Both the position numbers and the translations under genes were made by a program. Of a DNA stretch of 32,520 bases, positions 1,736 to 30,896 are shown in pieces (within the stretch, counting starts at the first letter, position 1; every line of letters starts with the position of its first letter). The notes below the pieces were generated by a model. The model worked only from the letters and a program-made list of their open reading frames with translations. It was not told the DNA's origin and did no database searches. This DNA is from a virus: positions 1-32,520 of the IMG/VR virus record IMGVR_UViG_3300036800_000542, one strand, 5' to 3'.

Positions 1736-2350
1736 CTAGGGCGAACCAAAGAAGAGCGGTACCCTTTGGCCGACCGGCGGGTTGACGGAAGTCCCAAGCC
1801 CGCCTTGCTGCGGTTGCGGCAGATTCGTAGGGTCAACACCTGATGGAGAGCCAACCGCGCTCATCGCATCGGCTGGATAGGCCGTCCACGAATGGGGATC
1901 GAGTTCCGAGCGAATTCCCCGATCGACGGACTCCCAAACATAGGGGCTTGCCTCTTCGTTAATGGTAGGGAAAATGCCATTACCCTCGCCGCGCGTGGCG
2001 GCGTATAGATCGTCCCCTTCCTGAAGGATCGACCGAGACGCTTTCCCGGGGTGAAGAAGGTGCCCCGGCTCTGTCTCGTTCACGATCGTCAGATGATCTG
2101 GATCAACGTGCTGACGAACCGGGCCCAAAACAGGAATATCTATTATGCCGCCGTCGACGCTGGGCTTGCCTTCCTGAAACGGGGTTGCATGCCTTGACAG
2201 GGATTCGAATGCCTGTTGCGGCGTATTTCCCTGAGAAATACTTCCGACCCATGTTTTGCTATCATAATGATGAGGGCCACTTGTAACCAAACCGATCGGC
2301 GGCAATATTGGCACGGACCAGCCGTTGGCCGACCGCATAGTCGTATCCAT
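1736..2350 (-). CDS. Candidate class I toxin-like protein
   Basis: A 204-aa protein with a very good ribosome-binding site (AAGGAG, 6 nt before the ATG). Residues 75-150 form a compact domain with a DPDHLTIVNETEPGHLLHPG stretch, then RGEGNG and a NEEASPYVWESVDRGIR helix. The last 50 residues are low-complexity Pro/Gly/Gln (LPQPQQGGLG), like the disordered tails of the other toxin-like genes here. It lies 52 nt downstream of a membrane-protein gene with an SOS box further upstream, the same SOS-immunity-toxin order as the pairs at 30 kb and 20 kb. I do not know the family. Toxin function is inferred from context; a virion-associated or secreted effector without toxicity is also possible. Confidence 0.6.
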   Translation of the reverse strand: MDTTMRSANGWSVPILPPIGLVTSGPHHYDSKTWVGSISQGNTPQQAFESLSRHATPFQEGKPSVDGGIIDIPVLGPVRQHVDPDHLTIVNETEPGHLLHPGKASRSILQEGDDLYAATRGEGNGIFPTINEEASPYVWESVDRGIRSELDPHSWTAYPADAMSAVGSPSGVDPTNLPQPQQGGLGTSVNPPVGQRVPLFFGSP

Positions 2351-2402
2351 AACTTCTCCTTGTCAGACTCAGTTTGGATGAGCGCCGCAACTCCGGCGAA
2401 AG

Positions 2403-2834
2403 CTAGTCGTTGACGCCAGCGTCAACGCTCTTGGCTCCGAACGATCGCCTGATGCGATTTTCCAGACAGCCGAATGCCGCCGAAATACAAATCGGCAGAA
2501 TATTTATGATGACCACAGCCAAAATAAGTGAAAAAGGAGTGATGGGCCCATCGGCCAGCATCTCCAGCAAGATCATAATTCCGACGAACAGAATGTTGCC
2601 GAACACGATCACGAACGGAAATTCTTCGTCCTGGGATAAACTGACCGCAGCCAAGGCACCACGGGCGAGCAACAAACAAGTAAAATTCAGTATCGACCAA
2701 CCAATCGCGATATAGAAAAACATGATGATAGGCGCGGCGCCCAAAGTAATAGCGCTTAGCAGATAGCAACATCCGGACTTTATGAGGAGGTCCAGGATTA
2801 TGCTCAACAGCCATTGGTATGGGGAGAATTTCAC
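2403..2834 (-). CDS. Integral membrane protein, putative immunity
   Basis: A 143-aa hydrophobic protein with about four membrane segments, near residues 8-40, 40-62, 72-94 and 100-122. A short basic tail (CLENRIRRSFGAKS) should be cytoplasmic. The start is GTG at 2834, preceded by AGGGA. It is followed 52 nt later by the candidate toxin at 1736-2350, and a GAAC-N7-GAAC box lies about 220 nt upstream. Four-helix inner-membrane proteins are typical immunity partners of membrane-acting bacteriocins, so immunity is the favoured role. No family name was recognised. The base composition is more AT-rich than the surrounding phage core, which suggests separate acquisition. Confidence 0.65.
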   Translation of the reverse strand: MKFSPYQWLLSIILDLLIKSGCCYLLSAITLGAAPIIMFFYIAIGWSILNFTCLLLARGALAAVSLSQDEEFPFVIVFGNILFVGIMILLEMLADGPITPFSLILAVVIINILPICISAAFGCLENRIRRSFGAKSVDAGVND

Positions 2835-2918
2835 CTGGTTGTCCCTGAGTGCAACAAACTGGATCCACGTTCAGTGATGATTAGCGGTATTGGCTATGCC
2901 ACAGCGCAATATTCCTTT

Positions 2919-2996
2919 TTAACTCCAGATCAACAGGAGCAGCGCGGCGCCTTTTGCGTATGCTGACAACGAGAGCTTCCTCATTCCGCGCGTCAT
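2919..2996 (-). CDS. 25-codon signal-peptide-like ORF behind an SOS box
   Basis: The frame encodes MTRGMRKLSL, then a hydrophobic run ending ALLLLIWS, and stops. It looks like a truncated export signal. It begins about 50 nt after the putative -10 of the SOS promoter, the same distance as the secreted protein gene at 30815. It may be the remnant of a periplasmic immunity gene whose body was lost, or a leader peptide. No strong ribosome-binding site is visible. Confidence 0.25.
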   Translation of the reverse strand: MTRGMRKLSLSAYAKGAALLLLIWS

Positions 2997-3046
2997 GACA
3001 CACTCAACCTGAAAGAGCACCCGCCTAACGAACGAGCCTATCTTCC

Positions 3047-3075
3047 TCTTAAGAACAAATCAAGAACAATATTCC
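3047..3075 (-). promoter_or_regulatory. LexA (SOS) box with weak promoter elements
   Basis: On the plus strand the site reads GAAC (3053-3056), seven bases, GAAC (3064-3067), the direct-repeat SOS box of alphaproteobacteria. A possible -10 on the minus strand is TTAAGA (3052-3047). The hexamer 17 bp upstream is a poor -35 (GGAATA). It faces the 25-codon ORF and the membrane-protein gene at 2834. Confidence 0.65.
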
Positions 3076-3092
3076 GTCTTGCATTCGCTCGA

Positions 3093-4301
3093 TCACCGCC
3101 GGCCGGACTTCCTAGCATGATAAAGCGCCACCGCGTCCTTGATGTCGCCCGAGCTCGATAGCCTGGAGCTGAGGGTGCGCAAATCCGCGTGCTCGCGCTC
3201 GGCCGCCGTGCGGGCCATGCCGGGTCGCTGCACCGGCGGCACTGGTCTGGCCGCGACGGCGTCTTTCGCCTTCATCATCAGGCGATATTTTCCGGCATCG
3301 TACATCATGCGCTGGAACACTGCGTTGCGCATCAAAGGCTCGCTGTTGAACAGCCGGAACATCTCAGGCTCGTCGATGCCGCTCGCTTTGGCGGACGCCA
3401 TGATCTCGGCCAAAACCGCCCGCTGGATCTCCGGCGGCTCACCTTTCATCATGGTCTCAAGGCGCGCATCTTCCGCTTTGGCGTAGCCGCGAAAGTTTTC
3501 CCGCGCCGTCCCATCGCGGCGAAGGCTCTCCTGCTGCTGCTGGGCGAATAGCTGCTCCGTGGTCGCGATCATCGCCTGCACGCGGGCGAATTTCGCCGGA
3601 TCCTGCCGAGACAACTGCTCGAGCGCGCCAGGCAGGTTATCCGGCGCGGTGCCGGCGAGCTCCGGAAACTGACTGAGAAAACTGACTTGCGCGATCCGCG
3701 TCGCAGCCGCGAGGCCATCGAGATAACCCTGCCGGGTCTGCTCGGCTTCGCTGATCCGCTGTTCGATCGCCTGGCGCACCTGCGGATGGTTTAATGCCTT
3801 ATCCAGTTCCGGGTCGAGCGTTGCTGCAAGGCCATCGTCTTTTCCCCGCAGCTCCGTCGCCGCCTTTTCCATCTCAGGTTTGCCGGAGGCCTCGTCGGCT
3901 TTGATATCCGGCGGCTCAAAACCGTAAAACTCGGCGGCATCGGGATCCCTGGCCAGGGCATCAGCGCGCAACGCATCGATGCGCGCGGCCAATTCCGCCG
4001 ATGTTTCGCCTTCCGCGGCGGCCTTGTCGGCCGCGATCCCGCGGGCATAGTCGCGCCCGGCGCGCTCGACCGAGACCGCCTCATTCGCCGCGGCCGGTTT
4101 ACCGCCCGGGCCGACATATCCCCGCACGGTGATTTCACCCCGCGGATCGGATCGCCGCTCCGCCGCCTCGCGCAAGGAGGCATGGTCGCTGCCGATCGTC
4201 TCCTCATCCTGCTTTTCGTTCGGGTCCGGCATCGGCTTGTAGCCGGCCTGCGCCAGATCGAACGCAGCACCGGTCAGCGCCACGTCTTGTTCGTCGGCCA
4301 T
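3093..4301 (-). CDS. Scaffold-like or internal virion protein
   Basis: A 402-aa, highly charged, Ala/Glu/Gln-rich, largely helical protein. The N-terminal 150 residues are disordered and acidic. The middle (residues 170-300) is predicted coiled coil, with IEQRISEAEQTRQGYLDGLA and a Gln-rich AQQQQES patch. The C-terminus contains RPVPPVQRPGMARTAAERE and then a short helix, SGDIKDAVALYHARKS. This composition and the VPPVQRPG tail are like scaffolding or minor head proteins of podoviruses. Its position, after the tail fibre rather than next to the capsid, would be unusual for a scaffold, so an ejection or internal head protein is an alternative. It lies between a DUF4279-type immunity gene and an SOS box, so cassettes flank it on both sides. 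Confidence 0.6.
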   Translation of the reverse strand: MADEQDVALTGAAFDLAQAGYKPMPDPNEKQDEETIGSDHASLREAAERRSDPRGEITVRGYVGPGGKPAAANEAVSVERAGRDYARGIAADKAAAEGETSAELAARIDALRADALARDPDAAEFYGFEPPDIKADEASGKPEMEKAATELRGKDDGLAATLDPELDKALNHPQVRQAIEQRISEAEQTRQGYLDGLAAATRIAQVSFLSQFPELAGTAPDNLPGALEQLSRQDPAKFARVQAMIATTEQLFAQQQQESLRRDGTARENFRGYAKAEDARLETMMKGEPPEIQRAVLAEIMASAKASGIDEPEMFRLFNSEPLMRNAVFQRMMYDAGKYRLMMKAKDAVAARPVPPVQRPGMARTAAEREHADLRTLSSRLSSSGDIKDAVALYHARKSGRR

Positions 4302-4414: not shown

Positions 4415-4870
4415 CTAGTTGAATTCCGGAAACACCTCGATGCCCAGATCTATTCGCAATGCGCTGAGGCGCGCCATGTCATGCCACCGAAAGCTGTCAC
4501 CAATGTTGACGTCGCCAGGTAAATTGACAATCAGGTCGATCGTGCCGCCATCGTCGACGATCTCGCTCAGGAAATCCTTATGTAATTCGAGCCTGTCGAT
4601 AATCTTAACGACATCCAGAAAAAACAGACGATTTCTTTCAACCCGAAACCAGTGGCTCCACTCGCTTTCTTTGTACGTACTAAGAAGAGACTTTCCGGCT
4701 GGCGTTATTCGGCGGCTGCCCGCTACGCCGGAAATATTCGGCTTGATCTGTAGTTTTTCCGTTATCCTCGCGGGATCGATGTTCGGATGTTTGATCATGA
4801 GCCTAATATTATATCTTAAAGACTGCTTTATTTCCTCATCCCATTCGTCTCTCTCATCGTTTAACGCCAT
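4415..4870 (-). CDS. DUF4279-like immunity protein
   Basis: A 151-aa soluble protein. The pattern IDPARITEKLQIKPNISGVA, then GSRRITPAG and a SEWSHWFRV segment near residue 70, is the signature layout of DUF4279 proteins (a D..EIT..LGI.P..G start followed by an aromatic-rich strand). These are frequently encoded beside polymorphic toxins. The ATG overlaps the end of the toxin gene by 10 nt, so the pair is translationally coupled and is the clearest toxin/immunity pair in the window. It probably neutralises the cytoplasmic toxin encoded just upstream. The C-terminal half (VNLPGDVNIGDSFRWHDM) fits a continuation of the same fold. Confidence 0.7.
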   Translation of the reverse strand: MALNDERDEWDEEIKQSLRYNIRLMIKHPNIDPARITEKLQIKPNISGVAGSRRITPAGKSLLSTYKESEWSHWFRVERNRLFFLDVVKIIDRLELHKDFLSEIVDDGGTIDLIVNLPGDVNIGDSFRWHDMARLSALRIDLGIEVFPEFN

Positions 4871-5604
4871 CGATCACGATCCTTTCCTTGCCGTCCGCTC
4901 GGCCTGCCTGAGCCTGTGAAGGTATCCGCAGGTCCGTGGTTTTCCCAGCTTTCATCAGGTTTTTGTGCCCAGACATCACCTGTCGGGGAAATTCTGACGT
5001 CATCCGCCGCCTTGGCGCCCACAGCCTCTTTGATCTCCGTGTGGTCGCCTGACCAGGGCGTCTTATCTATTCCGCGAGACCCAGCAGGCGGTCGGCTCCC
5101 ATTATCGTTATTTAGGACATTTCCAATAGCATTTCCAATCGTACGGACGGCCCCGATCGTTGAATGAACGAAGGCGTCGTTTTCGGGAGTACCCGGCACA
5201 AACAGCGGCGGCAGCGGAATGCCAACCGGCGACCTCGGCAGAGAATATTGCGCCAGCATCGTATTTTGTGCCGGAGCCTGGGAAGTCGAACCTGGCGCGT
5301 TCTCTCCGGTCCCGGAGTTTCCGGTCGAGACTGTCCCGTACTGCGTGCCGGGCATCGGTGACGGCGCCGCATAGGGAGCGCCCGGGTTTGCTGACGTCGA
5401 TTGCCGATAGGCTTGTAACTGTCCGGACAAAAGCGGTGCCAGCTTGGATGCCGGTGACGACGCATGCGGAGCAGCCGCGGCCTGATTGAAGCTCGCATTC
5501 TGCTGATATTGATCCGGGAATTGCTGCAGTGCCAGCAGCCGTCCCAACAAGCCGCCGCCACTGTTGAACTGCTGCGGATCAAAATAGCCGTCGAACAGCC
5601 CCAT
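4861..5604 (-). CDS. Class II polymorphic toxin coupled to the tail-fibre gene
   Basis: A 247-aa protein with three parts. The N-terminal leader (residues 1-40) contains GGGLLGRLLALQQF, related to the GGLLGRLLALHAEQ segment of the 8.7 kb toxin. Residues 40-170 are a Pro/Ser/Gln-rich linker. The compact C-terminal domain (about 75 residues) contains TPWSGDHTEIKEAVG, an RISPTGDVW strand and the basic tail GSGRPSGRQGKDRDRWR. Small C-terminal domains with a WSG-H motif and a basic tail are typical of toxin tips, possibly nucleases, but the family is not named with certainty. The start codon is fused to the tail-fibre stop as TGATG. The DUF4279-like gene follows with a 10-nt overlap. Trafficking by the leader to the particle is inference. 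Confidence 0.7.
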   Translation of the reverse strand: MGLFDGYFDPQQFNSGGGLLGRLLALQQFPDQYQQNASFNQAAAAPHASSPASKLAPLLSGQLQAYRQSTSANPGAPYAAPSPMPGTQYGTVSTGNSGTGENAPGSTSQAPAQNTMLAQYSLPRSPVGIPLPPLFVPGTPENDAFVHSTIGAVRTIGNAIGNVLNNDNGSRPPAGSRGIDKTPWSGDHTEIKEAVGAKAADDVRISPTGDVWAQKPDESWENHGPADTFTGSGRPSGRQGKDRDRWR

Positions 5605-6735
5605 CAGCGGGCCTCGTGGATTCGCCGCGATGCCTCGGTCGCGGCGCGATAATCCACCGCCTTGTATCCGTTGATCTCGATCACCGCGGCGGGTGTGGTT
5701 TTTTCCACGTCCTGCGCCATCAGGCCGATGTGATAGGCCGGCGCGCCCTTGTAGCGATAACCATAGACCGGTGTGCCATCGAACAACGTGCCGACTTGTT
5801 CAATATCCTCCTTCAGCCGGCGATCCGACCAGTTCAATAGACCAAGAAGACCACTCCCGCCTGTTTTAGCGCCACCAGCGCCGATTCCGGTCGCTGAACC
5901 GAGAAGGTTGCCGATGCCACCAGCGAGCGTTGCAAACTGCTGCGCGCCAGACATCTGCTGGGTGCTCTGAGAGTTATTGGTCGACTGCTGTCCAAGCTGC
6001 GCAATCGGCACCCCGATCTGCGCCAGCAGGCTGAGATTTTGCGCCGGGATCTGCTGCGCCAAGTTGCGCCAGCGCCAGTTGCTGTTGTGGGGTGTAGTTC
6101 TGCGCGTTGAGCGCATCCTGCGACGAGGTGACGCCCTGCAATTGATTGGCGAGGCCCTGCTGTGTTAGCCCCGACAACAAGCCGCTGGTCGAGTTCTGCG
6201 CGCCGTAAAGCGCATTCGCCGCGCTCAACTGGTTGGCGACATCCTGGTTATATTGCCCGGCGATCACCGGCGCCTCGCCCTGCGCGATGCCCCGCGCCAA
6301 TGTCTGCTGATTCATGCCCGAACCGTCACGGCCCGCGGCGGCGAATTGCGAATTGACCTGGTTGGTGGTGTCGGTCGCGATCTGGTTGAGCTGCGCCTGC
6401 AGCGCCGGGTTGTTGCCAATCATCGAGCCGTTGGCATAAGGCGTGAGCTGGCTCTGCAACGTCGAGAGGCCGCTTTGCAGGTTGGGGGCCTGCGCGGTGG
6501 CGCCGCCGCCGTTCAGGAGATTGCTGGCAAGGCCGCTGATTTGCGAGGCATAGGGATTGCCCTGCGCGGCATTCTGCGAGAGCTGATTGATCGCGCCACT
6601 TTCGGTCGAGTTCAGCCCGCTGTTCTGGATCAGCGGACTGAGCTGCCCCAAAATGCCCTGCAACATCGGCTGCGCCGCTGTCCACGGCGCGGTTTGCGAC
6701 TGCTGCGTCTGTGTCGATGACGATTGACCGCCCAT
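5604..6735 (-). pseudogene. Tail fibre with S74 intramolecular chaperone, frameshifted
   Basis: Two frames read together give a 376-aa tail protein. The first (6735 to about 6060) is a Gln/Asn/Ser-rich fibre-like region (GILGQLSPLIQNSGLN, AAGRDGSGMNQQ). The second (about 6060 to 5604) ends in a peptidase S74/intramolecular chaperone domain with SDRRLKEDIEQVG, a PVYGYRYKG strand and HIGLMAQDVE. One extra base at 6059-6062 shifts LALAQL into a frame that ends after 27 more codons. Removing it restores LALAQLAQQIPAQ and an open frame to the end. S74 domains fold and then cleave themselves off phage fibres. As written the chaperone is not made, so the fibre would be non-functional unless this is a sequencing error. 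Confidence 0.8.
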
Positions 6736-7040: not shown

Positions 7041-7583
7041 GTGTCAATCGAGCCATCAGTTCAGGCCATAAAGCAGACGCCGCAAAGCTCTAGGAGGCGA
7101 TATCCGCTCCTAAGCATAGCCGAGGTTGCCATATATTTTTGCTGGCCGGTCGCGACGTACTTCGCGATGCGATCTCTGAGCAATCTGGGTGCGTTAGAAT
7201 ACGGACTACTCGCGGCGAGCGCGCTATTGTGGTGGGTATCGGCTATTCAGACGACAGTTCTTCTATTCGAGACAGCGATCGCGCTGTGGCCTGTGCGGCT
7301 CAACACAGCCGCAGTAGCGTGGCTGCTGGGGTGGCCGTTACTCGTGATTGCCGCTATTGCGTTTCAATATTCGAGTGGTCATCCCGATTGGCTTATGTCT
7401 TCTTTTCTTTGGTACGACCTCTATCTCGGCGTCCCTGGAACGATATTATGGTGGGGAGCATGTCGCCGCGTCTACGACGCTCTGTTCACAGCCATGGAGA
7501 CGCGCTGGCCGGGTACCAAAGGGATCAGGGAACTCGTAAGCGGCCTCCTTCGAAGCTTGCTCCACCACCACCATTCCTCTTGA
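7041..7583 (+). CDS. Membrane protein convergent with a toxin gene, putative immunity
   Basis: A 180-aa protein on the opposite strand to the phage operon, with about four hydrophobic segments: IAEVAIYFCWPVATYFAM, YGLLAASALLWWVSAI, AVAWLLGWPLLVIAAIAF and YLGVPGTILWWGA. It begins with GTG; no strong ribosome-binding site is seen, so the start is uncertain. It ends 26 bp from the end of the convergent, frame-corrected toxin (7609-8752). In pore-forming colicins the membrane immunity gene is also encoded tail-to-tail with the toxin, and this layout is the main reason to propose immunity. Aromatic and Trp residues at segment ends support true membrane helices. No family was recognised. Confidence 0.55.
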   Translation: MSIEPSVQAIKQTPQSSRRRYPLLSIAEVAIYFCWPVATYFAMRSLSNLGALEYGLLAASALLWWVSAIQTTVLLFETAIALWPVRLNTAAVAWLLGWPLLVIAAIAFQYSSGHPDWLMSSFLWYDLYLGVPGTILWWGACRRVYDALFTAMETRWPGTKGIRELVSGLLRSLLHHHHSS

Positions 7584-7608
7584 GCGAGGCTAAATAGACA
7601 TCTCTGGA

Positions 7609-8752: not shown

Positions 8753-8862
8753 CAACGCAATTCCTTGTCCATAATGATGTGCTTCGCCTCGTAACTGTCG
8801 AGCGTACGCAGCCTTCCCCTGCGCCCGAAAATCCGGACGCGCGCAGCCTTCGGCTAGTTACG
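8752..8862 (-). repeat. Duplicated 3' end of the GNAT-like phage gene
   Basis: The 110 bp upstream of the toxin at 8752 closely match 10935-11030, the 3' end of the GNAT-like gene. Reading frame and stop (KELR then TGA) are preserved and overlap the toxin ATG as TGATG. Together with the shared toxin leader, the copied block spans about 240 bp (roughly 8625-8862 against 10800-11030). It marks an older cassette displaced from the GNAT junction. Confidence 0.85.
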
Positions 8863-14838: not shown

Positions 14839-14839
14839 C

Positions 14840-20428: not shown

Positions 20429-20556
20429 CGAACACATTCCTTCAGCGGGAGGTCGGATAGATATTGTTCAGTCCTGTTCGTGTCGGCGGTCACGGCGATA
20501 CGGACATCACCAATGAGGCAGTATTTGCGCCGCGATTGATCGCGCCAACTGCACGA

Positions 20557-21825: not shown

Positions 21826-21847
21826 TCATGCCGCGTTTGGAGTCGAT

Positions 21848-23511: not shown

Positions 23512-23834
23512 TAGAGACGTCCCATGCATTGGGCCACGCACAACCGAAATTCTGAAGACTGTAAATCACCGCTTGGTGACGACAGCAAGTGTAAACACTT
23601 GTCCACGCACCTACTATAGGCAGCATGACTGGCCATACTATATTGTTGGCCTGACCCTGCTTGGGAAGGCCCTAGCGAGTCAGGTCCGTCAGTCACCGAC
23701 AGCCCGTTCGGATCAGCGCTCGGCGACGGCGCCAACGGTGGCTGTTGGATCATGTCATTCGTACCAAACGGAACGAGCGACGCGTTTTCGAAATCCGGCT
23801 GATAGTTGACCGGGACCAGCGAATAATCAGCCAT
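23511..23834 (-). CDS. Class II toxin A, coupled to the portal stop
   Basis: A 107-aa protein that begins within the portal 3' end (8-nt overlap, ATGGCTGA). The leader MADYSLVPVNYQPDFENASL is shared with the 21.5 kb toxin. A Pro/Ser-rich linker follows. The tip YSRCVDKCLHLLSSPSG plus EFRLCVAQCMGRL has four cysteines arranged C-x3-C...C-x3-C, which could form two disulphides or bind a metal. The activity is unknown. The 72-aa gene follows as putative immunity. This is the most recent module of the portal-linked array, since its portal 3' end is intact. Confidence 0.65.
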   Translation of the reverse strand: MADYSLVPVNYQPDFENASLVPFGTNDMIQQPPLAPSPSADPNGLSVTDGPDSLGPSQAGSGQQYSMASHAAYSRCVDKCLHLLSSPSGDLQSSEFRLCVAQCMGRL

Positions 23835-25482
23835 GATGAACGACCCTCAGGAATTTGCCCGACCGCTGCGGGTCCGAAACGTAATGATGACCGTCTCGCG
23901 CTTTGCGCGATCCAGGCGGATACGAGCGCGGCGCCTTGCCTGCGCCGGTCGCCGCTTTCAGATGCGCATCGAGCACCGACAGCCGCGCATCGAGATCGGC
24001 CTTCAGCTTGGCGAGCTCAGCTTCGGTTTGCGCCTTGACCTGCAGATGGATCGCAGCGTTCTGCGCCTGCTGCTGCTCGATCTGCGCCTTATGGCCGGCC
24101 ATCATCTGGTCGGTCTGCGCCCTCGCCTGCGCGGCCAGCAGCTTTGGATCCGGCGGCGGCGTGGGCGGCGCCGGCGGCGGATGCAGCAACTGCCCGGTCT
24201 GCGGGTTGATCGCGGTGGGATCGTTGAAGAACTGGTCCGGGTTCTTGTGACCCATGATCCGCGTCAGCTCGGCCGCGGTGTTGTAGAGCTGGACGTCGCC
24301 GACCAGGTTGGTCTTGCCGCCGGACAACAGCTCCTTCTGCACATTTGCAATCGCCATGGTCTGAGCGAATTGCTGGGCCTTGCCGCCGGCGCCGAGACCG
24401 ACATTGATCGTCATGTCGTCGCGGGTTTTCCAGCCGCGCGGATCGATATTGGTCCAGGCATTGCGCAGCCGCACGGTCTGCTGCTGCTGGCCATGCTTGC
24501 GGATGGTGCCGTGCAGCAGCGCGAAGATATCGCGGACGCCCTCCGCCATGATGCGGGCGATCAGCTTCATCCGCATCTGCGAGGCCGAGAAGGTCTGCGC
24601 CACCGCAGTCGCCGACTGGTTCTGCAGCGCGTCGGCATCGAGGCCCTGGGTCTGCTTGGCAAGCCCCGTGCGCGTCTCCAGTTCGGCGTCGAGATATTGC
24701 ATCATCGGATAGATCGACGAGGTGATATCCGGCACCACCTGCCAGTTCAGCCCGCCCGGCTGCTTGGTGCGGACCACGCCGCCGGGGCGCGACACCAGCA
24801 GGTCATCCAGCGTGTTGGGGCCGGCCATGCCCTCGGCGACTTCGACGCGCGGATTGTTGTGCAGATAGAGATTGTCGAGCGCGCCGCGCTTGAGCGCGGT
24901 CTTCTCGCGCTGCACCGGCATCACGAGATCGGCGATCGAGCGGCCGAAGAAGCGATGCGTCACCGGCACCGGCGTGGTCGCCGCGAACGGGATCGCGTCG
25001 AACGGCGTGATGCAGTCCTTGCCGTCCTTGCGCAGGATCTCGCTTTGGTCGCCGCCAGTGATGACCTGGTAGAGGCAGGCGCGGCCCTCGCCTTCATAGT
25101 CCATCCGCACATAATGTTCGGTGATGCGCACCAGCCGCGCCGCCGAATTCACCCCGCCCGCATTGGTGCTGTAGTGCTCGCCCACGGTGTCGCGCGCCAG
25201 CGTTTCGATCTCGGTATTGCCGGTATAATCGCCGAGCGACTTGATCTGCGCCTCATCAAAGCCTTCCGCGATCAACTGGCTTTCGGTTTTGGTGACGACC
25301 TCGTGGAAGCAGTAATTGCAATCGCGGATGCTGCGCGCGCCGCGCTCGATGCCGAATTCCTCCGGCGGCACGCCGAGCACCCGCGCCTGGGCAAGCTTGC
25401 GCGTGGTGACGATGGTGACGTCATGGGTGACGGGAGAAGCCGGCAGCGACGGCGGCGGCGGAGATAGAAAAGGGACAGCCAT
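23827..25482 (-). pseudogene. Portal protein, C-terminal portion
   Basis: A 551-aa frame from ATG 25482. After a short new leader (AVPFLSPPPPSLPASP) it reads as the continuation of the portal: PVTHDVTIVTTRKLAQARVL, ERGARSIRDCNYCFHEVVTK, TPVPVTHRFFGRSIADLVMP, REKTALKRGALDNLYLHNNP and TGLAKQTQGLDADALQNQSA. These are typical of P22-type portal proteins that form the dodecameric DNA gate. The Gln/Ala-rich C-terminus (QQAQNAAIHLQVKAQTEAEL) is the barrel-like helix. The N-terminal portion is 2.9 kb away at 28399-28986. Expression of two separate chains is possible but unlikely to give a working portal. Confidence 0.8.
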
Positions 25483-25618: not shown

Positions 25619-25894
25619 TCAACCTGCGTTGAGGCGCCGGAGAAATTCGAGATAGGCGTCGTTGAGCGAAAGTGATCCGTCAGGCGATGCGGGCGCATGC
25701 GACGGCTGCAAGAATGGCGAGCCTTGCGATGGATCGTAAGCGCGGCCCATCAGAAACCGCGTCGGGCCGCTGTCGGTCGAAGCCGGTGTCGCATCGGGTT
25801 GCAAAGGCGGCGCATCCTGCAAGGCCAGTGGTCCCGATGGCGGTGGATTCGCAGATGAGGTCGGATCAATTCCAGCAAAATTTCCTGTGCTCAT
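25619..25894 (-). CDS. Short Pro-rich protein of a class I module
   Basis: A 91-aa Pro/Ser-rich, mostly disordered protein with SGPTRFLMGRAYDPSQGSPF and a C-terminal helix SLSLNDAYLEFLRRLNAG. The C-terminal helix resembles VLDDYIRYLNQTYGN at the end of the Gly-rich class I protein, so it may be a shared C-terminal signal. The start overlaps the stop of an upstream fragment as TGATG. It is probably a truncated toxin or the surviving tail of one. Confidence 0.45.
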   Translation of the reverse strand: MSTGNFAGIDPTSSANPPPSGPLALQDAPPLQPDATPASTDSGPTRFLMGRAYDPSQGSPFLQPSHAPASPDGSLSLNDAYLEFLRRLNAG

Positions 25895-26341: not shown

Positions 26342-26809
26342 TCATATTGGTTCTTCCGAGCCCCTTCTATCATCCCAGTGATCTGGCGACAGAAGACGGA
26401 ACTTGAGATAGAGCGAGCCCACGCGCTCCTTTCCAACACTCATCCCATCCCCCGCCGATACGCCTTTGAAAATAGGAAGTTGATGCAATGCTACGCCCCG
26501 TAGATCAATGGCCATCTCATCGCGTCCATTTTCAAAATGGCAGCAGCCGAGACTCCAACCATGCAAGCGCAGCCTCACAACCCGAGGCATTGCGCGACGC
26601 AAATCAATGTCGAGTTTCAGCCCTAGCTCTTTTAATTCCCCGTGACACGGGTGATCAAACCAGCAAATCAGAAAGCTGCCATCTGCTCCTGATTGGGTAT
26701 CAGCGCCGATCTTGATCGCGTAATCGCCTGCGCGCGCAGCGCCGCCCGACAACAGTGAGCCGGCGATGGCGAGCATAAGGACGAATTGGGTTCGGATGCT
26801 TGTTCTCAT
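26342..26809 (-). CDS. Secreted protein with signal peptide under an SOS box, putative immunity
   Basis: A 155-aa protein from ATG 26809. Residues 1-28 are a standard signal peptide (RTQFVLMLAIAGSLLSGGAA, cleavage expected after ARA). The mature part has four cysteines in CWFDHPCHG and LGCCHF, which could form disulphides in the periplasm, and beta strands such as PRVVRLRLHGWSLG and GSLYLKFRLLSPDHW. A LexA box lies 80 nt upstream. With the secreted protein at 30228 it makes two periplasmic proteins under SOS control. This fits immunity against a toxin acting in the periplasm or on the cell wall. No toxin domain survives beside it. Confidence 0.65.
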   Translation of the reverse strand: MRTSIRTQFVLMLAIAGSLLSGGAARAGDYAIKIGADTQSGADGSFLICWFDHPCHGELKELGLKLDIDLRRAMPRVVRLRLHGWSLGCCHFENGRDEMAIDLRGVALHQLPIFKGVSAGDGMSVGKERVGSLYLKFRLLSPDHWDDRRGSEEPI

Positions 26810-26886
26810 CACTTCACATTGATCGTTTCACTGGCTTGCGCGGTGTCGCGAGACCTGAATCATGCAACCTCAGGGCGCTTCCTCGC

Positions 26887-26936: not shown

Positions 26937-27060
26937 TCAACTCGTCGCCGACGATTTTTCCGAACCGTTTTCCAGTTCGTCCAGCGCATTATGCACAGTG
27001 TGCGCCACGATCTTCATGGCACCGCCGGATTCCATCACGGCCTGAGCTAGCAGTGGATAG
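26937..27060 (-). repeat. Copy of an internal portal segment
   Basis: About 120 bp matching 28399-28520, the end of the portal N-terminal portion. Translation gives LLAQAVMESGGAMKIVAHTV, then NALDELENGSEKSSATS and TGA, against LLAQAVMQSGGAMKIVAHSV, ALDDLESGPEKSEATS and TGA. The same stop codon follows in both. The left edge coincides with the end of the Gly-rich gene, so the copy flanks that cassette as a long direct repeat. Confidence 0.85.
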
Positions 27061-27786
27061 TCAAGTATCCGTCTCGCTATTGGTGAGACGATGCCGGTTA
27101 CGGATTGGAGTTGTTGCGCAAATGATCGAGCAACATCCGAGTAGCCCGCCCGGCTCATCTGGCGATGGTGCTGACGGCGCCGGCTGCTGCGAATTGAAGT
27201 CGCTGGTGGACGCCTGCCAGCCGTCCATTCCGTCGCCGAGCGGATTCTGATAGCGAGAACTCACGAACCTTATCGGTGGATCACTGTTCGGCCCAACGGC
27301 TGAAAAACCGCTTTGCAAGGTCCGATCGAAGGGCGAGAGTTCGTCTTCCGGACCCATCGCCGGCCTGGTGTAATGCAACAGATTGCCGATCCCGGCGGCA
27401 AGCTGCTGAGGAGTCCACGTATAGGTGCCAGCGATATCAGGCAAGGCGAGCCCCGTTTCGACCGAGGACACTCGCGCGTTCCATGGCTGGGGAATGCCGT
27501 TCTGATCAGGAATGCTGGCATTCACGGTCGCGGACGGCAGGATCGTCGACACGGTCCCGCTCGCGCCATACCCAAGGGTATCGCCCGAGGTCATTCCCTT
27601 TCGCAAAAAGGCACCTTGAACCCCTCCCCCGCCCAGGCCCAGACTACCCGTCAAGGTTACCGCAGGGGCCGTGAGCGAGCCGGGATTCCAATAATAGGTG
27701 CCGCCTACGCCGAGGGGAGTAGGATAAAGAGGGACAGCTACAGAGATTCCATCCGGCCGGGGATTTCCATTTTTATTTTCCGACAT
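27061..27786 (-). CDS. Gly-rich toxin-like protein inserted in the portal gene
   Basis: A 241-aa protein with GAGGA before the ATG. The first 150 residues form Gly-rich beta sequence (PLGVGGTYYWNPGSLTAPAV, LTGSLGLGGGGVQGAFLRKG, TLGYGASGTVSTILPSA), followed by DIAGTYTWTPQQLAAGIGNL. It is similar in style to the Gly-rich class I protein at 19086. A Pro-rich stretch (SQQPAPSAPSPDEPGGLLG) leads to a short Cys-containing end that may result from a frameshift, because the next frame reads SDVARSFAQQLQSVTGIVS. A plus-strand membrane gene starts 60 nt upstream and is the best immunity candidate. The toxic activity is inferred. Confidence 0.5.
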   Translation of the reverse strand: MSENKNGNPRPDGISVAVPLYPTPLGVGGTYYWNPGSLTAPAVTLTGSLGLGGGGVQGAFLRKGMTSGDTLGYGASGTVSTILPSATVNASIPDQNGIPQPWNARVSSVETGLALPDIAGTYTWTPQQLAAGIGNLLHYTRPAMGPEDELSPFDRTLQSGFSAVGPNSDPPIRFVSSRYQNPLGDGMDGWQASTSDFNSQQPAPSAPSPDEPGGLLGCCSIICATTPIRNRHRLTNSETDT

Positions 27787-27845
27787 GGAAGTATATCCTC
27801 ACGCGGGAATTGTGGCGGCTCGGGCCCACGAATGAGCGTTTTAAA

Positions 27846-28247
27846 ATGAATCACGCTGTCGCTGTTATCGCGATTGTCTGGACCGCCGGGTTGCTTGTTT
27901 TCGCCGGACGATTCATGAATTTCATCCGGCTGCTCTACAACAACCTCGATCCAACTAAGGATTTTTCCAGGACACGCCTGTTTCGACCTTATTATCTTTT
28001 CTTCAGAAGGACTGACGCACGGGCGATCTACCCCGAAAATCTCACCGAGCTTGGCAGGCGATATCAACAGCAAGCGATCCAGAATGAACGGATGGCCATC
28101 GCCTGGGGCATCAGTGGCTTCGTATTGTTGACAATCATACTTGCGCCATCCGAAGACGCCCTTCTCGTCGGCATCCTTGCTGCCGCTCTTGGGGGATTTT
28201 ATTTTTGGGGACTCCGCCTTCTCCCTCAAGAGAAGGGCCCGTATTGA
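27846..28247 (+). CDS. Divergent three-TM membrane protein, putative immunity
   Basis: A 133-aa protein on the plus strand, divergent from the Gly-rich toxin-like gene. Hydrophobic segments are AVAVIAIVWTAGLLVFAG, AIAWGISGFVLLTIILA and LLVGILAAALGGFYFWGL. Between the first two lies a basic loop with SRTRLFRPYYLFFRR. The inner-membrane location and its pairing with a Gly-rich protein parallel the 19.5-19.9 kb pair. The ribosome-binding site is poor and the start is uncertain. It sits inside the block that interrupts the portal gene, so it arrived with that insertion. Confidence 0.55.
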   Translation: MNHAVAVIAIVWTAGLLVFAGRFMNFIRLLYNNLDPTKDFSRTRLFRPYYLFFRRTDARAIYPENLTELGRRYQQQAIQNERMAIAWGISGFVLLTIILAPSEDALLVGILAAALGGFYFWGLRLLPQEKGPY

Positions 28248-28351: not shown

Positions 28352-28440
28352 TCAACTCGTTGCCTTTGATTTTTCCGGGCCGTCCCGCATTGAGCTGATC
28401 AACTCGTTGCTTCCGATTTCTCCGGGCCGCTTTCCAGGTC
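28352..28440. repeat. Short direct repeat at the portal break
   Basis: Two neighbouring copies of about 35 bp, ATCAACTCGTTGC-(2)-TTTTCCGGGCCG-like, lie at 28352-28384 and 28399-28434. A third, more diverged copy is at 26937-26970. Each copy spans the codons EKSEATS and the TGA. They mark the recombination points at which material was inserted into the portal gene. Confidence 0.7.
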
Positions 28441-28986
28441 GTCCAACGCGCTATGCACGGAGTGCGCCACGATCTTCATGGCGCCGCCGGATTGCATCAC
28501 GGCTTGCGCCAGCAGCGTGAACTGGTCGTCGGTGAGGTCGTAATAGGTCTCGCGCTGTTCTTCCTCGCGCTCTTCCCACCAAACCTTCACGATGCCGACC
28601 TTTGAAAGCAGCGCATCCTTGATGAAGGAATACAGCACCATGAAGCCGGGGTTTTGCTGCATGAAGACGTGATTGACGTAATCGGTCTCCTGGGCTGCGG
28701 CAGCCTCGTCCTCGGGACCGACCGGCTCGAAGCGCACGACCTCGTCGGAGCCGGCGAAAATATCCATCAGGCTCGGCATCAGGCCTTCGATGGTATCGGA
28801 GACATCGGTCGAGACCGCGCGCGAGCGCCCGTCCTGCGCCGGCATGTCCTTGCGCATATCGCCAAGATAATAATCCATTGCATCGCCGCGCTCTTCCATC
28901 AGCTTGGCCGCCGAGATCGCCGCCAGCGCGTCAGCCTTCTCTGAAGCAAGCATCGCCTTGAGATCGAGCGAGGTCATTTTGGGCAT
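28399..28986 (-). pseudogene. Portal protein, N-terminal portion
   Basis: A 195-aa frame from ATG 28986: MTSLDLKAMLASEKADALAA, MEERGDAMDYYLGDMRKDMP, VSTDVSDTIEGLMPSLMDIF and VLYSFIKDALLSKVGIVKVW, then EEREEEQRETYYDL. These are the clip and wing-type parts of a P22-like portal. It ends SALDDLESGPEKSEATS-TGA. In an intact portal the next segment would be the PVTHDVTIVTT found at the start of the 25482 frame, so a 2.9-kb block lies in between. The full portal would be about 730 aa. Confidence 0.8.
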
Positions 28987-29066
28987 GAATGTTTCTTTCA
29001 GATCGGTTTGGCGCGTCGGCCGTGATGGCGCCCCGGCGGAGCAATCCAGGCGACGCAGGAATCGCG

Positions 29067-29994
29067 CTAGCGTCGCCGCGGGAACCACGGCTGCGACGGA
29101 TCATCGCGATAGAAGCCGCGCAGTTGGTCGGCGAGCGGCGGCGGAGCAGGCTGGTTCGGACTATCCGGATCGACACCTGCCGCTGCCATCAGCCGGGCCA
29201 GCAGGCCGCCGACGGGCGGATTTGGATTGGCGGCTGGCGCAAGCGGCGCTGCCGGCGCGACGGATGACGGCATCGGTGCTTGCGGCGGTAAGGACATATT
29301 TGGATTGCGCGAGCTGATCCCGCCAGGAGAAAAACTCCAGTTTCCAAAGCGGTCGTCGAAGGAAGCCGGACGATCGGTAGAGATAGCGTCATCGCCCGGC
29401 GTTTGCGGTCGTCCGGCAATGCGGCTGCTCAGGCGTCGATAATTACTGTCATCTGCTTGACTGCCAGGTCCATTTTCCGAGTTGGCGCCGGTGTCTTGCA
29501 AATATTGCTGATACTGCGGAAGGTAGGCCGGCCGGCTTGGATTAGGATCGATCGGCCCCTGTTGATCCCAATAAGCAGTGGGGTTCACTACGTTGCCGGC
29601 GGGGTCCTTCAATTGATAATGGACATGCTGATCTTTTGTCCCGGTATTGCCCATCGTGCCGATCAGCTGCCCCGCAACAACCGGATCACCGATGGAGATA
29701 TGCCGAGCTTGAGTATGCAGTATCTCGTGGGAAAATCCGTTCGCGTCCCTGATGGCTATTTTGCCAACTGCCTTGCCCGGCGTTCGTCACAATGCCGGTC
29801 ACGGGCGAGCGCAACGCCGGATGCATTTTATTGAGGACCGCCACTTTCCCGCCAAGGTAATTGAAATCGACACCACCATGTGGAATCGATGCAGGAGGGT
29901 TCCTTCCCTCTACCGCTCCAAAGGGACTGGTGATGTGAGGGGACACGCCGTTGATCGGCGGTAGCACTCGATTCATTATATCTTGCCAGGACAT
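29067..29994 (-). pseudogene. M23 peptidase toxin-like protein, class I, frameshifted
   Basis: Reading across one frameshift gives a 308-aa protein. ATG 29994 (GGAGAG upstream) starts MSWQDIMNRVLPPINGV. The M23/LytM metallopeptidase domain follows: ITSPFGAVEG, SIPHGGVDFNYLGG (zinc ligands H and D), SPVTGIVTNAGQGS, then in the second frame GFSHEILHTQARHISIGDPV and QHVHYQLKDPAGNVVNP (HxH zinc ligand). M23 enzymes cut peptidoglycan cross-bridges. Residues 150-308 are a linker with DRPASFDDRFGNWSFSPGG and a Pro-rich end, GGLLARLMAAAGVD. The break is at 29766-29767 (one extra base, or two missing). The secreted protein just upstream is its expected periplasmic immunity partner. Confidence 0.75.
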
Positions 29995-30190
29995 GTCTAC
30001 TCTCCCGTCAGGCGTGATCGCTGTGCGAACGCAAGATCCAGCAGCCCGTCCGCAGGGCACCGGAAAAGATGATTTGGGACATTGGTAGACATAAGGCCGC
30101 CGCCCGTTTGCTGGCTGACCGACCTCAGTGGCCTAGTTCGATCCCGGGTCGCGTGAGCTACGCCATAGGGAGGAACATCTGTCGTGGACT

Positions 30191-30226
30191 ATGACCGCCG
30201 CCGAGTGACAACTCGGTGGCGGTCAT
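30191..30226 (-). terminator. Strong hairpin after the secreted protein gene
   Basis: Two 16-bp arms (30191-30206 and 30211-30226) pair with a single G-T wobble around a 4-base loop, starting 1-2 nt after the stop of the 195-aa gene. No run of T follows on the minus strand, so it is a weak intrinsic terminator at best. It may lower downstream expression relative to the immunity gene or protect the mRNA end. Confidence 0.6.
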
Positions 30227-30227
30227 A

Positions 30228-30815
30228 TCAATCACCTTGGCGCATCGTGGCGTTGATCTGGTCAAGATACTTGATTGCGAGATCGATGTTGCTCTTGTAC
30301 TTGACCGGCGGCATCGCGAACTGAAGCGCGCCATTGAGATCGGTAATCGCCTCGTTCTTGTCGGCAGTGGACCTTTTCTTGTCAGCATGGATTCTGGCGA
30401 TCCGCAATTTTATCAAGGCGTCGCGGCCAACATAAGTTTTGGTTACAGAATCATAGCCTCCGAGCGCCAAAGAAACATTTTCCTCGACGTTGAGATATTC
30501 GGCGTAGCTTGCGAGGCCGCTCCGCCGTGCAACGCCGTCAAGTTTCACGATGGTCTCCAGCTTCAGCTTGTCGATATCTTCCGGCGCATTATCCGTGATG
30601 GCGTCGATGTCCTTGCTGGCGGCAAGCATGCCTTTGATTTGCTTTTCAGTCAGCGCCACCTGTTTAATGGCGGAAACCGGCCGTTGCGCGGTTTGGGCCG
30701 GCGCTGTCTGTTCCTCGGCTTGCGCCAACGTATCGCTACTGGACAGGATGACTATCGACGCCGCGAGGCAGGCGATACTCCACGCGGCGATAGTCATGCG
30801 AACGAACGCGGACAT
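30228..30815 (-). CDS. Periplasmic protein under an SOS promoter, putative immunity to the M23 toxin
   Basis: A 195-aa protein from ATG 30815. Residues 1-32 are a signal peptide (VRMTIAAWSIACLAASIVIL, cleavage near LAQA). The mature protein is mainly helical: VALTEKQIKGMLAASKDIDA, PEDIDKLKLETIVKLDGVA, SYAEYLNVEENVSLALGG and IDLAIKYLDQINATMRQG. A helical periplasmic protein beside a peptidoglycan endopeptidase gene suggests an inhibitor that protects the producer's wall, as is known for other cell-wall bacteriocins. A near-consensus promoter with a LexA box lies 52 nt upstream. The hairpin at 30191-30226 separates it from the toxin gene. The family is unknown. Confidence 0.7.
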   Translation of the reverse strand: MSAFVRMTIAAWSIACLAASIVILSSSDTLAQAEEQTAPAQTAQRPVSAIKQVALTEKQIKGMLAASKDIDAITDNAPEDIDKLKLETIVKLDGVARRSGLASYAEYLNVEENVSLALGGYDSVTKTYVGRDALIKLRIARIHADKKRSTADKNEAITDLNGALQFAMPPVKYKSNIDLAIKYLDQINATMRQGD

Positions 30816-30867
30816 GAAGGTATCTTCACTTTCGGGCCACCGGAATTCCGGGGCTGCTCGGAAATCT

Positions 30868-30896
30868 TCACTAGAACAAATAAAGAACATTGTCAA
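30868..30896 (-). promoter_or_regulatory. SOS promoter: LexA box in a 17-bp spacer, consensus -35
   Basis: The minus strand reads TTGACA (30896-30891), exactly 17 bp, then TAGTGA (30873-30868). The spacer holds GAAC-N7-GAAC (30874-30888 on the plus strand). It drives the secreted protein at 30815 and probably, past the hairpin, the M23 gene. Confidence 0.85.

What the first reader, a model, noticed from the sequence alone, without database searches (positions are those of the whole stretch)
1736..30896. Toxin/immunity-like cassettes at almost every junction of one phage structural operon
Between the core virion genes, and once inside the portal gene, about eight blocks hold a toxin-like gene next to a small immunity-like gene. 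Sites are terminase/portal, inside portal, after portal, before capsid, after GNAT, after tail fibre and after the scaffold-like gene. The putative antidotes differ in compartment (periplasmic, inner-membrane, cytoplasmic), as expected for toxins with different targets. Together this looks like a prophage-based polymorphic toxin array, possibly loaded into or released with the particle. Coding content, order and overlaps are visible; toxicity and delivery are inferred.
Basis: partly seen in the sequence, partly recalled or inferred. Interest (0 to 1): 0.95.

Follow-up and report, generated by a model that had tools for sequence, protein, structure and literature searches.

The report
Domesticated phage loaded with bacterial toxins
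Some Bradyrhizobium soil bacteria carry, at one fixed chromosomal place, the genes of a tamed virus particle whose gene junctions are filled with exchangeable antibacterial toxin and antidote genes; the toxins carry short end-tags, one of them resembling the start of a protein that related viruses probably inject, so the particle may be a toxin-delivery weapon.

Summary
The window is one copy of a P22-like phage-derived element that sits at an orthologous chromosomal site in Bradyrhizobium (10 of 10 genomes examined, on at least one side). An integrase lies near it in 0 of 10; most structural genes are under purifying selection (median dN/dS 0.1-0.2); it tracks host phylogeny. Seven window junctions hold toxin/partner cassettes; capsid-to-fibre junctions hold almost none. 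The portal is not interrupted: this lineage mostly encodes it as two ORFs, with cassettes between them (up to 8 kb). Related cassettes carry known toxin domains (M23, WHH, colicin-DNase, NucA) and antidotes (SUKH, ComJ, Ivy, DUF6881); most effectors match no family. Several junctions have a characteristic terminal tag, and the same toxin domain occurs with different tags at different junctions. One tag matches the N-terminus of a putative ejection protein of related phages (E=1.9e-6 for the window gene). Partner compartment depends on junction. Partial core-gene copies mark displaced modules. Loading into, and delivery by, the particle are inferred, not shown. Against it: tagged toxin genes also stand alone in genomes without the particle, and some copies, the window's included, are damaged.

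The parts
31234..32520 (-). terminase large subunit (core)
   Evidence: PHROG terminase, E 6.8e-46
30228..30815 (-). partner of the TerL/portN cassette, signal-like N-terminus (candidate periplasmic immunity)
   Evidence: matches in 6 fetched loci; ORF
29686..30060 (-). N-terminal part of an M23-peptidase effector (frameshifted in the window)
   Evidence: 58% to L055 4436-4726; L055:4445-5416 is Pfam M23, E 2e-10
29067..29654 (-). C-terminal part of the same effector with the tag SFDDRFGNW
   Evidence: 38% to L040 7107-7787, inside L040:6765-7793, which aligns with M23 proteins; tag
28399..28986 (-). portal, N-terminal polypeptide (core)
   Evidence: phrog_1216 positions 11-171; median dN/dS 0.12
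27846..28247 (+). membrane-like partner on the opposite strand
   Evidence: matches in 27 fetched loci, opposite strand in the seven hits printed
27061..27786 (-). effector of the TYYWNPGS family with (degraded) GGLLG C-terminal tag, portN/portC junction
   Evidence: matches in 36 fetched loci; alignment of nine
26940..27059 (-). partial copy of the portN 3' end (mark of a displaced module)
   Evidence: portN residues 156-195 at 78%
26342..26812 (-). partner with signal-like N-terminus (candidate periplasmic immunity)
   Evidence: 69% to L018 7025-7480
25619..25894 (-). effector remnant ending in LNDAYLEFLRRLNAG
   Evidence: by eye much like the C-terminus of L018:8206-8844
23827..25461 (-). 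portal, C-terminal polypeptide (core)
   Evidence: phrog_1216 positions 197-675; median dN/dS 0.18
23511..23834 (-). effector 1 with N-terminal SLVPV tag, overlaps the portC stop
22616..23107 (-). soluble partner (candidate immunity)
   Evidence: 78% to L037 10661-11149; 8 fetched loci
21848..22332 (-). second, broken copy of the same partner (two ORFs)
21576..21826 (-). portC fragment (residues 394-468) running up to a second tagged effector (displaced module)
21094..21573 (-). effector 2 with N-terminal SLVPV tag
   Evidence: 62% to L044 10634-11104
20557..21063 (-). partner of effector 2
   Evidence: 68% to L044 11134-11634, next to the effector homologue
20132..20437 (-). core gene c98
   Evidence: found in all 10 genome composites
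19508..19888 (-). membrane-like partner of the glycine-rich effector
   Evidence: matches in 32 fetched loci
19086..19511 (-). glycine-rich effector; here and in L060 at c98/capsid, in the six other aligned relatives at portN/portC
   Evidence: 34 fetched loci; alignment
18525..19073 (-). tag region (SFDDRFGSW, PIFDFP) of the c98/capsid cassette, apart from the effector ORF
17183..18148 (-). major capsid protein (core)
   Evidence: phrog_1328, E 1.1e-102; median dN/dS 0.11
11642..13114 (-). virion structural protein (core)
   Evidence: phrog_3287, E 2.7e-61; median dN/dS 0.10
10047..10937 (-). effector with N-terminal FDPDDY..GG tag, GNAT/ejection junction
   Evidence: missed by my gene caller, so not in the HMM test
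9220..9876 (-). TPR-like partner
   Evidence: weak TPR, below cut-off; 51% to L075 19994-20632
8755..8847 (-). GNAT 3' fragment (84%) in front of a second tagged effector (displaced module)
7472..8755 (-). second FDPDDY-tagged effector
   Evidence: 35% to L119 12700-13566
5974..6735 (-). ejection protein 1, frameshifted into 5604-6116
   Evidence: phrog_4287 DNA ejection protein, E 0.0021; one match in pachy, two frames in the window
4861..5604 (-). effector whose N-terminus matches the N-terminus of phage ejection protein 2
   Evidence: HMM E 1.9e-6; rest of the protein without relatives
4415..4870 (-). DUF4279-like partner (below the Pfam cut-off)
   Evidence: E 1.1e-4, 22.9 bits, cut-off 25
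3093..4301 (-). scaffold-like protein (core)
   Evidence: phrog_3927, E 1.7e-4
2403..2834 (-). membrane-like partner
   Evidence: ORF; one weak relative
1736..2350 (-). effector at the scaffold/end junction; relative L017:15193-16062 sits at c98/capsid with another C-terminus
673..1665 (-). three small conserved end genes (e1399, e875, e673)
1..633 (+). host HAD-like gene (chromosome; name by eye)
   Evidence: relative in 28 of 30 genomes, 5.4 Mb from the element in BTAi1

Best explanation
The element is a domesticated, vertically inherited P22-like phage (in its way of life like a gene transfer agent or PBSX) whose particle has been turned into a carrier of polymorphic antibacterial toxins. 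Shown by sequence: a conserved, selected structural core with host-like phylogeny and no integrase nearby; toxin/partner cassettes at fixed junctions; characteristic tags at the toxin end that faces the core gene (N-terminal after portC, GNAT and ejection protein 1; C-terminal before portN, portC, capsid and e1399); exchange of toxin plus partner; displaced modules with partial core copies. Inferred: the tags are docking segments by which toxins are built into the particle. One class matches the N-terminus of a putative ejection protein that the element no longer encodes in full. On cell lysis, particles bind other bacteria and eject toxins into envelope or cytoplasm, and kin are spared by the immunity genes. 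Junction goes with compartment: nucleases with soluble antidotes carry the post-portal tag (so does an ADP-ribosyltransferase at a stand-alone locus); peptidoglycan hydrolases with membrane or exported antidotes carry the C-terminal tags.
For: Core conservation and selection; orthologous site and deletion scars; an integrase near the element in 0 of 10 genomes, while the temperate relative has one about 17 kb from its terminase; Mantel r 0.84 with a distant chromosomal gene. Toxin and immunity families by junction; partners with signal or membrane segment 1 of 21 against 42 of 94, p 3.5e-4. Tags: SLVPV 28 of 94 proteins at portC/c98, 0 of 754 core, 0 at the other junction classes printed; GGLLG 38 of 116 at portN/portC, 0 of 754 core, 0 of 99 c98/capsid, 3 of 65 TerL/portN, 1 of 2 TerL/portC; both also in 5 and 3 of 396 flank or unplaced proteins; shuffles 1 and 1 of 7,875. 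Same domain with different ends. The ejection-protein-2 N-terminus HMM hits the window effector at 1.9e-6 and none of 875 core proteins below 0.1. Bodies of ejection proteins 2 and 3 and of the virion lysozyme are missing from the 9 composites that hold ejection protein 1 and from the window, except a 110-residue piece of protein 3 in Tv2a2. 8 of 8 partial portC 3' copies lie in front of an SLVPV start, 7 of them within 4 bp.
Against: No experiment shows particles, toxicity or loading. SLVPV-tagged toxin genes stand alone in 12 genomes, and 11 of 27 tag-positive genomes have no portC match; their ORFs are open, so the tag may serve something else too. C-terminal tags show no significant likeness to the virion lysozyme tail. 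The FDPxxY tags at GNAT/eject themselves score only E 0.4 to 1.1 with the ejection HMM, and tags of that kind also turn up at TerL/portN (L023) and portN/portC (L045), so tags are not strictly junction-bound. Most effectors have no known family. Some copies are degraded: the window's ejection gene, L016 without capsid and L017 cut off in the capsid gene, G230 without a capsid match. BTAi1 and others have no SLVPV gene.
Confidence: 0.65

Rival explanations
1. The toxins are made with the late operon and set free by lysis like colicins, without being part of the particle. The tags are only constant recombination anchors that allow cassette exchange beside core genes.
For: The tag faces the core gene, as an exchange anchor would (by eye). 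Partial core copies with tag in front of displaced modules show that this stretch takes part in exchange. Tagged toxins occur where no particle genes are found.
Against: Stand-alone toxins keep the tag far from any core gene. One tag class matches a phage protein N-terminus. Tag and partner compartment vary together by junction. No receptor-binding part was recognised in the effectors, though none was searched for as such.
Confidence: 0.17
2. The tags serve another delivery apparatus that is widespread in Bradyrhizobium. The phage locus is just one of several places where tagged toxins are kept.
For: 11 of 27 tag-positive genomes have no portC match; stand-alone locus at one conserved slot in 12 readable loci.
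Against: Several different tags, mostly tied to phage junctions; selection on the structural genes; four of the particle-less genomes carry in-place deletion scars of the element, so their stand-alone genes may be leftovers.
Confidence: 0.09
3. The peptidoglycan hydrolases are ordinary virion-associated entry enzymes and the other genes are phage accessory genes; no warfare.
For: M23 is the commonest family (14 of 123 long representatives), and compact phages carry a virion-type lysozyme.
Against: Nuclease families and SUKH, ComJ, DUF6881 and Ivy partners; several different cassettes per locus; contents vary between related strains.
Confidence: 0.05
4. The cassettes are toxin-antitoxin or anti-phage genes that protect the element or host from loss or infection.
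For: HicA/HicB and TacA-like hits in single cassettes.
Against: Such hits are single; exported and membrane partners, peptidoglycan hydrolases and terminal tags do not fit intracellular toxin-antitoxin pairs. The anti-phage library PADLOC was not searched.
Confidence: 0.04

Closest known systems
MuF polymorphic toxins of temperate phages (PMC5576092; Bxa in PMC11699363; passages of both read)
   Same: variable toxin domain plus immunity gene in the head module beside the portal gene; capsid targeting proposed
   Different: no MuF family among the Pfam hits listed; here several junctions with short tags, toxin domain at either end, arrays with displaced modules, and a vertically inherited element without integrase nearby
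Gene transfer agents, RcGTA and BaGTA (PMC9662315, PMC3610622; passages read)
   Same: phage-derived, vertically inherited, fixed chromosomal site, structural genes, co-diversification with host
   Different: P22-like core; polymorphic toxin cassettes inside the structural operon; DNA transfer not tested. BaGTA lies near secretion-system and toxin genes but, in the passages read, not with tagged toxins in its structural operon
PBSX-like killer phages, R-tailocins and extracellular contractile injection systems (recalled; PMC8213781 seen in a search listing only)
   Same: domesticated phage particles used against other cells, some with toxin cargo
   Different: unlike tailocins and injection systems, head, portal and packaging genes are kept
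CDI/Rhs polymorphic toxins with orphan modules (recalled)
   Same: exchange of toxin and immunity by recombination, displaced modules keep part of the upstream sequence
   Different: the trafficking part is a short tag beside a phage structural gene and can be C-terminal
Bradyrhizobium phage ppBeUSDA76-2 (record OP596614; study of Bradyrhizobium phages PMC10127595, passages read)
   Same: same core genes and two-ORF portal
   Different: integrase, recombination genes, complete ejection proteins and lysozyme; no cassettes seen

Membership tests
Polymorphic toxin system | constant trafficking part joined to variable toxin domains | tested here: met
   tags by junction; same domain with different ends; that the constant part directs traffic is not shown
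Polymorphic toxin system | immunity gene next to the toxin | tested here: met
   known immunity families in cassettes; most partners unassigned
Polymorphic toxin system | displaced (orphan) modules | tested here: met
   8 of 8 partial portC 3' copies in front of a tag start, 7 within 4 bp, G016 13 bp by match ends
Polymorphic toxin system | toxicity neutralised by the partner | not testable with these tools
   needs bench work
MuF polymorphic toxins | MuF domain at the N-terminus | tested here: not met
   no MuF family listed for 123 long and 125 short cassette representatives; the short-set list was full at 25 families
Gene transfer agent | vertical inheritance and co-diversification with host | tested here: met
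   orthologous site; Mantel r 0.84, 18 genomes; one marker gene only
Gene transfer agent | no mobility genes of its own | tested here: met
   PF00589 near the element in 0 of 10 genomes; other recombinases and replication genes not searched
Gene transfer agent | particle cannot hold its own genome; packages host DNA | not testable with these tools
   needs particle DNA
Gene transfer agent | delivers DNA to other cells | not testable with these tools
   needs bench work
Active temperate prophage | integrase with the element and variable insertion site | tested here: not met
   for the window copy itself, beside HAD, neither can be read
R-tailocin or contractile injection system | headless tail | tested here: not met
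   terminase, portal and capsid present and under selection

The most novel reading that the evidence does not exclude
Bradyrhizobium makes a domesticated, full-headed phage particle that acts as a multi-warhead toxin injector. Toxins ride on short portable ejection or docking tags, with separate tags for cargo meant for the envelope and for the cytoplasm, and some tagged toxins are loaded in trans from a stand-alone chromosomal locus. The boundary of the split portal gene is one of the places where cargo is exchanged.
Probability: 0.45. Interest if true: 0.96.

Novelty: new variant of a known kind. Interest (0 to 1): 0.9.

Why it matters
It would join two fields that are usually kept apart, gene transfer agents and polymorphic toxins, and suggests why bacteria keep a phage particle for so long: as a weapon. 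The tags make an open question testable, namely how phages choose which proteins to load into the head and eject. A short tag that sends a foreign protein into a target bacterium's envelope or cytoplasm would be of direct interest for cell biology and for the ecology of a major group of soil and legume symbionts.

Tried and rejected
Portal interrupted by an insertion or intron: rejected, because it is two ORFs in compact relatives too. Likeness of C-terminal tags to the virion lysozyme tail, which looked likely by eye: no hit below E 0.1, so not claimed. AlphaFold2 of effector 27061-27786 with nine sequences gave mean pLDDT 43.5 and was not used for a fold search. PDB sequence search of 21094-21573 found nothing up to E 1. 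Pfam on ten window effectors gave nothing, and on ten partners only hits below the curated cut-offs. The window's HAD neighbour was not found beside the element in BTAi1.

Literature: searches for Bradyrhizobium with prophage and polymorphic toxin (2 papers), MuF (15), Bradyrhizobium with gene transfer agent, prophage and domesticated (0), gene transfer agent with polymorphic toxin (7), domesticated prophage with toxin, capsid, interbacterial and cargo (28, of which 15 listed), BaGTA with toxin (11), ejection protein with polymorphic toxin (4), Bradyrhizobium with defective phage and bacteriocin (1) and split portal (0) listed no title or abstract start that describes this system; only open-licence papers are held.

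Limits: gene calls are from a script of mine, which missed some genes (for example 10047-10937). Tag patterns were read from the same data that they are counted in. The compact class was mine and partly rests on gaps. Signal and membrane prediction and the split into tagged and partner proteins are crude patterns. Only 80 of 282 viral matches were kept by the tool. Near-identical loci were removed by hand before the counts, but some pairs remain (L002/L047, L083/L084, L077/L078); one search is not de-duplicated, and the loci counts include places fetched twice. Compact loci were dropped. For one search I gave 78 of 116 representatives, leaving out mostly short ones. dN/dS used pairs with dS above 0.1.

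Full report
WHAT THE WINDOW IS. The window is a virus record of 32,520 bases without a host genome on hand. Nearly all likely genes lie on the minus strand. PHROG matches give terminase, two portal pieces, capsid, a virion structural protein, tail fibre, an ejection protein (weak, E 0.0021) and a scaffold-like protein. A scan of genomes with the C-terminal portal piece gave 31 loci, nearly all Bradyrhizobium. A scan of viral contigs gave 282 matches, of which the tool kept 80. In a genus survey 43 of 265 genomes matched at E 1e-20 or better, 34 of them over 450 or more residues at 50% identity or more; this is a minority of the genus and includes compact phages.

THE CORE IS CONSTANT, THE JUNCTIONS VARY. 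In 10 genome composites the core genes found appear in the same order, with losses: aesch (L017) is cut off within the capsid gene, and another locus, L016, lacks the capsid. Gaps over 300 bp fall at certain junctions: TerL/portN 37 of 43, portN/portC 59 of 72, portC/c98 30 of 74, c98/capsid 52 of 54, GNAT/eject 9 of 10, scaff/e1399 5 of 6, c104/GNAT 7 of 18, fibre/c203 6 of 20, eject/scaff 2 of 10, c203/tail 2 of 18, c107/c110 1 of 36. Capsid/c124, c124/c107, c110/c168, c168/c165, c165/fibre, tail/c104 and the last two end junctions never show one. In the window the occupied junctions are TerL/portN, portN/portC, portC/c98, c98/capsid, GNAT/eject, eject/scaff and scaff/e1399.

THE PORTAL IS SPLIT, NOT INTERRUPTED. 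Among 97 loci with both portal parts, 95 have two ORFs and two are fused in frame (one from a Kaistia genome, L027, and one Bradyrhizobium MAG, L014); the distance between matches runs from 7 bp (fused) and 30 bp (split) to 7,985 bp. Phage ppBeUSDA76-2, which has an integrase, also has two portal ORFs, whereas two further relatives have one ORF of 719 and 737 residues (L183, L185). Both halves are under purifying selection (median dN/dS 0.12 and 0.18). So the cassettes use a natural gene boundary. A portal gene in two ORFs is itself unusual as far as I recall; one paper search found nothing on it.

A DOMESTICATED ELEMENT. Flanking chromosomal gene families are shared on at least one side in all 10 composites, and upstream in G245, G142, G230, G042 and G049; for Tv2a2 the far side was not reached, B21 shares little of its upstream flank, and downstream there are two variants. 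Between the core and the chromosome lie what look like small terminase, tail fibre, lysozyme and holin genes (names mostly by eye). Integrase family PF00589 was found in every genome but near the element in 0 of 10 (nearest on the same contig more than 200 kb away, in BTAi1), while the temperate relative has one about 17 kb from its terminase. Four genomes (G080, G165, G189, G244) show the same site with only a 5' piece of TerL left, joined to the last genes of the element: deletion in place. Portal distances follow those of a chromosomal gene elsewhere in the genome (Mantel r 0.84, 18 genomes, p 0.0005 with 2,000 permutations). Median dN/dS is 0.10 to 0.19 for 14 core genes at median dS of 0.6 to 1.5; scaffold, GNAT and e875 reach about 0.25, e673 0.32, tail fibre and c203 about 0.41. 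The window copy is beside a HAD-like gene that lies 5.4 Mb from the element in BTAi1, so it has moved or the record is rearranged; in trees of portal and HAD the window falls near the same group of species, with weak support.

TOXINS AND ANTIDOTES. Ten window effectors match no Pfam family, but related cassettes do. Of 123 long representatives, M23 is found in 14, WHH nuclease in 3, colicin-DNase in 2, Ivy in 2, and NucA/NucB, CHAP, DUF6973 and others in one each; most have no family. Of 125 short ones, single hits fall to SUKH families, ComJ, DUF6881, DUF4265, Ivy, TacA, HicA and others. By junction: portC/c98 together with ten proteins of three stand-alone loci (57 proteins) gave WHH, colicin-DNase, NucA/NucB, SUKH, ComJ, DUF6881, DUF4265 and, from a stand-alone locus, Tox-ART-HYD1, and no M23; TerL/portN with portN/portC (78 of 116 representatives) gave M23 in 8 and Ivy in 2; c98/capsid (59) gave M23 in 6 and a HicA/HicB pair's families. 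M23 is thus in 0 of 57 against 14 of 137 (p 0.012), and partners with a signal or membrane segment number 1 of 21 against 42 of 94 (p 3.5e-4). Individual hits were checked for ten proteins, nine with a family.

TAGS. Several junctions have a characteristic constant end. SLVPV, doubled, at the N-terminus: 28 of 94 proteins at portC/c98, 0 at the other junction classes printed, 0 of 754 core proteins. GGLLG at the C-terminus: 38 of 116 at portN/portC, 3 of 65 at TerL/portN, 1 of 2 at TerL/portC, 0 of 99 at c98/capsid, 0 of 754 core. Both also occur in 5 and 3 of 396 flank or unplaced proteins; shuffled sequences give 1 and 1 of 7,875. Weaker patterns among representatives of 150 residues or more, anywhere in the protein: FDDRFG 6 of 21 at TerL/portN and 2 of 45 at c98/capsid; RRL/RYL 15 of 45 at c98/capsid, but also 8 of 21 at TerL/portN, 4 of 48 at portN/portC and 1 of 31 at portC/c98; IFFPF 1 of 4 at scaff/e1399. 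By eye, not counted, the constant end faces the core gene and the partner lies on the other side. The same domain occurs with different ends: M23 at three junctions; the glycine-rich effector at portN/portC and, in L060 and the window, at c98/capsid; a third family in two genera with at least three kinds of end; the window's 1736-2350 and L017.

WHERE A TAG COMES FROM. In six compact relatives a protein of 393 to 537 residues follows ejection protein 1; in ppBeUSDA76-2 its neighbours on both sides match DNA ejection PHROGs, while it matches none itself. An HMM of its first 45 residues from these six hits window 4861-5604 at E 1.9e-6, L083 at 7.5e-5, L025 at 1.6e-4, L023 at 0.0026, pachy at 0.004 and L045 at 0.013, searched against 2,197 protein ends (875 core, 738 flank or unplaced, 584 cassette). 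No core protein scores below 0.1 (best 0.15). Of the 738, five do: L083 and L025 (unplaced tag proteins), two phage homologues (one of them a training sequence) and one SLVPV protein at 0.012. Tags at GNAT/eject score only 0.4 to 1.1. L023 and L045 lie at TerL/portN and portN/portC, so this tag is not bound to one junction. The bodies of proteins 2 and 3 and of the virion lysozyme are absent from the stretch fetched in 9 composites that hold ejection protein 1 and from the window, apart from a 110-residue piece of protein 3 in a cassette region of Tv2a2; the rest of those genomes was not searched for them. So some toxins sit where ejection proteins sit in relatives and wear the end of one of them. 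The C-terminal tags have no such known source: an HMM of the virion lysozyme tail found nothing. Another genus of the family (G384) has its own array, with three effectors, one of them M23, sharing another C-terminal end.

DISPLACED MODULES. Eight partial copies of the portC 3' end were found in the genus (G002, G003, G006, G016, G022, G023, G142, G245). All eight lie directly in front of an SLVPV start, seven within 4 bp and G016 13 bp by match ends. The window has a portC fragment at 21576-21826 that runs up to the second SLVPV effector, a GNAT fragment at 8755-8847 and a portN copy at 26940-27059. This is what exchange by recombination would leave behind.

AGAINST AND UNEXPLAINED. SLVPV genes occur in 27 of 265 genomes, 11 of which have no portC match. 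Twelve loci of thirteen fetched could be read, and all twelve lie at one chromosomal slot without phage genes; two further genomes (G154, G232) were not fetched for this. In 11 particle-less genomes no capsid match was found, and TerL only as fragments in five. The stand-alone toxins have open ORFs with dN/dS of 0.27 and 0.35, weaker constraint than a neighbour's 0.10. They may be trans cargo, leftovers after loss of the particle, or signs of another route. G230 has terminase and portal but no capsid match. None of the delivery steps has been tested.

MECHANISM AND CONFIDENCE. Domestication and selection: about 0.93. Toxin/immunity nature of most cassettes: about 0.88. Loading by tags and delivery by the particle: about 0.65; on checking I lowered the overall figure by 0.01 because one tag is less junction-bound than first written. 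Nearest known things are MuF toxins (PMC5576092, PMC11699363) and gene transfer agents (PMC9662315, PMC3610622), of which passages were read; the element meets the vertical-inheritance mark of the latter and lacks the MuF mark of the former among the hits listed. I rate it a new variant of a known kind that may deserve more if loading is shown.

Noticed in passing
L146-L157, e.g. L146:10222-16606: SLVPV-tagged toxin/immunity genes at a stand-alone chromosomal slot between a 499-residue gene and a 170-218-residue gene, also in genomes without the particle.
   Followed up: partly
L185-L186 (G384, another genus of the family): An independent array between ejection protein 1 and tail fibre: three effectors including an M23 share the C-terminus ELLKLR..GSRGLFPIQ.
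   Followed up: partly
window 1-633 and 673-903: The element ends next to a HAD-like gene here, not next to the tail fibre and lysis-like genes seen at the usual site; moved element or rearranged record.
   Followed up: partly
window 5604-6735: Ejection protein 1 lies in two frames in the window but gives one match in relatives such as pachy; real decay or a sequencing error.
   Followed up: no
window 3093-4301: The scaffold-like gene lies after the ejection gene here but before the capsid gene in compact relatives.
   Followed up: no
window 27846-28247: This partner gene lies on the opposite strand from the operon in the window and in the hits printed for relatives, which may allow its own expression.
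   Followed up: no
L040:17968-19059: A c98/capsid block that probably holds the HicA/HicB-like hits (member not named by the tool).
   Followed up: no
window 13114-14838: Tail fibre and its neighbour evolve faster than other core genes (median dN/dS about 0.41), as expected for receptor binding.
   Followed up: no
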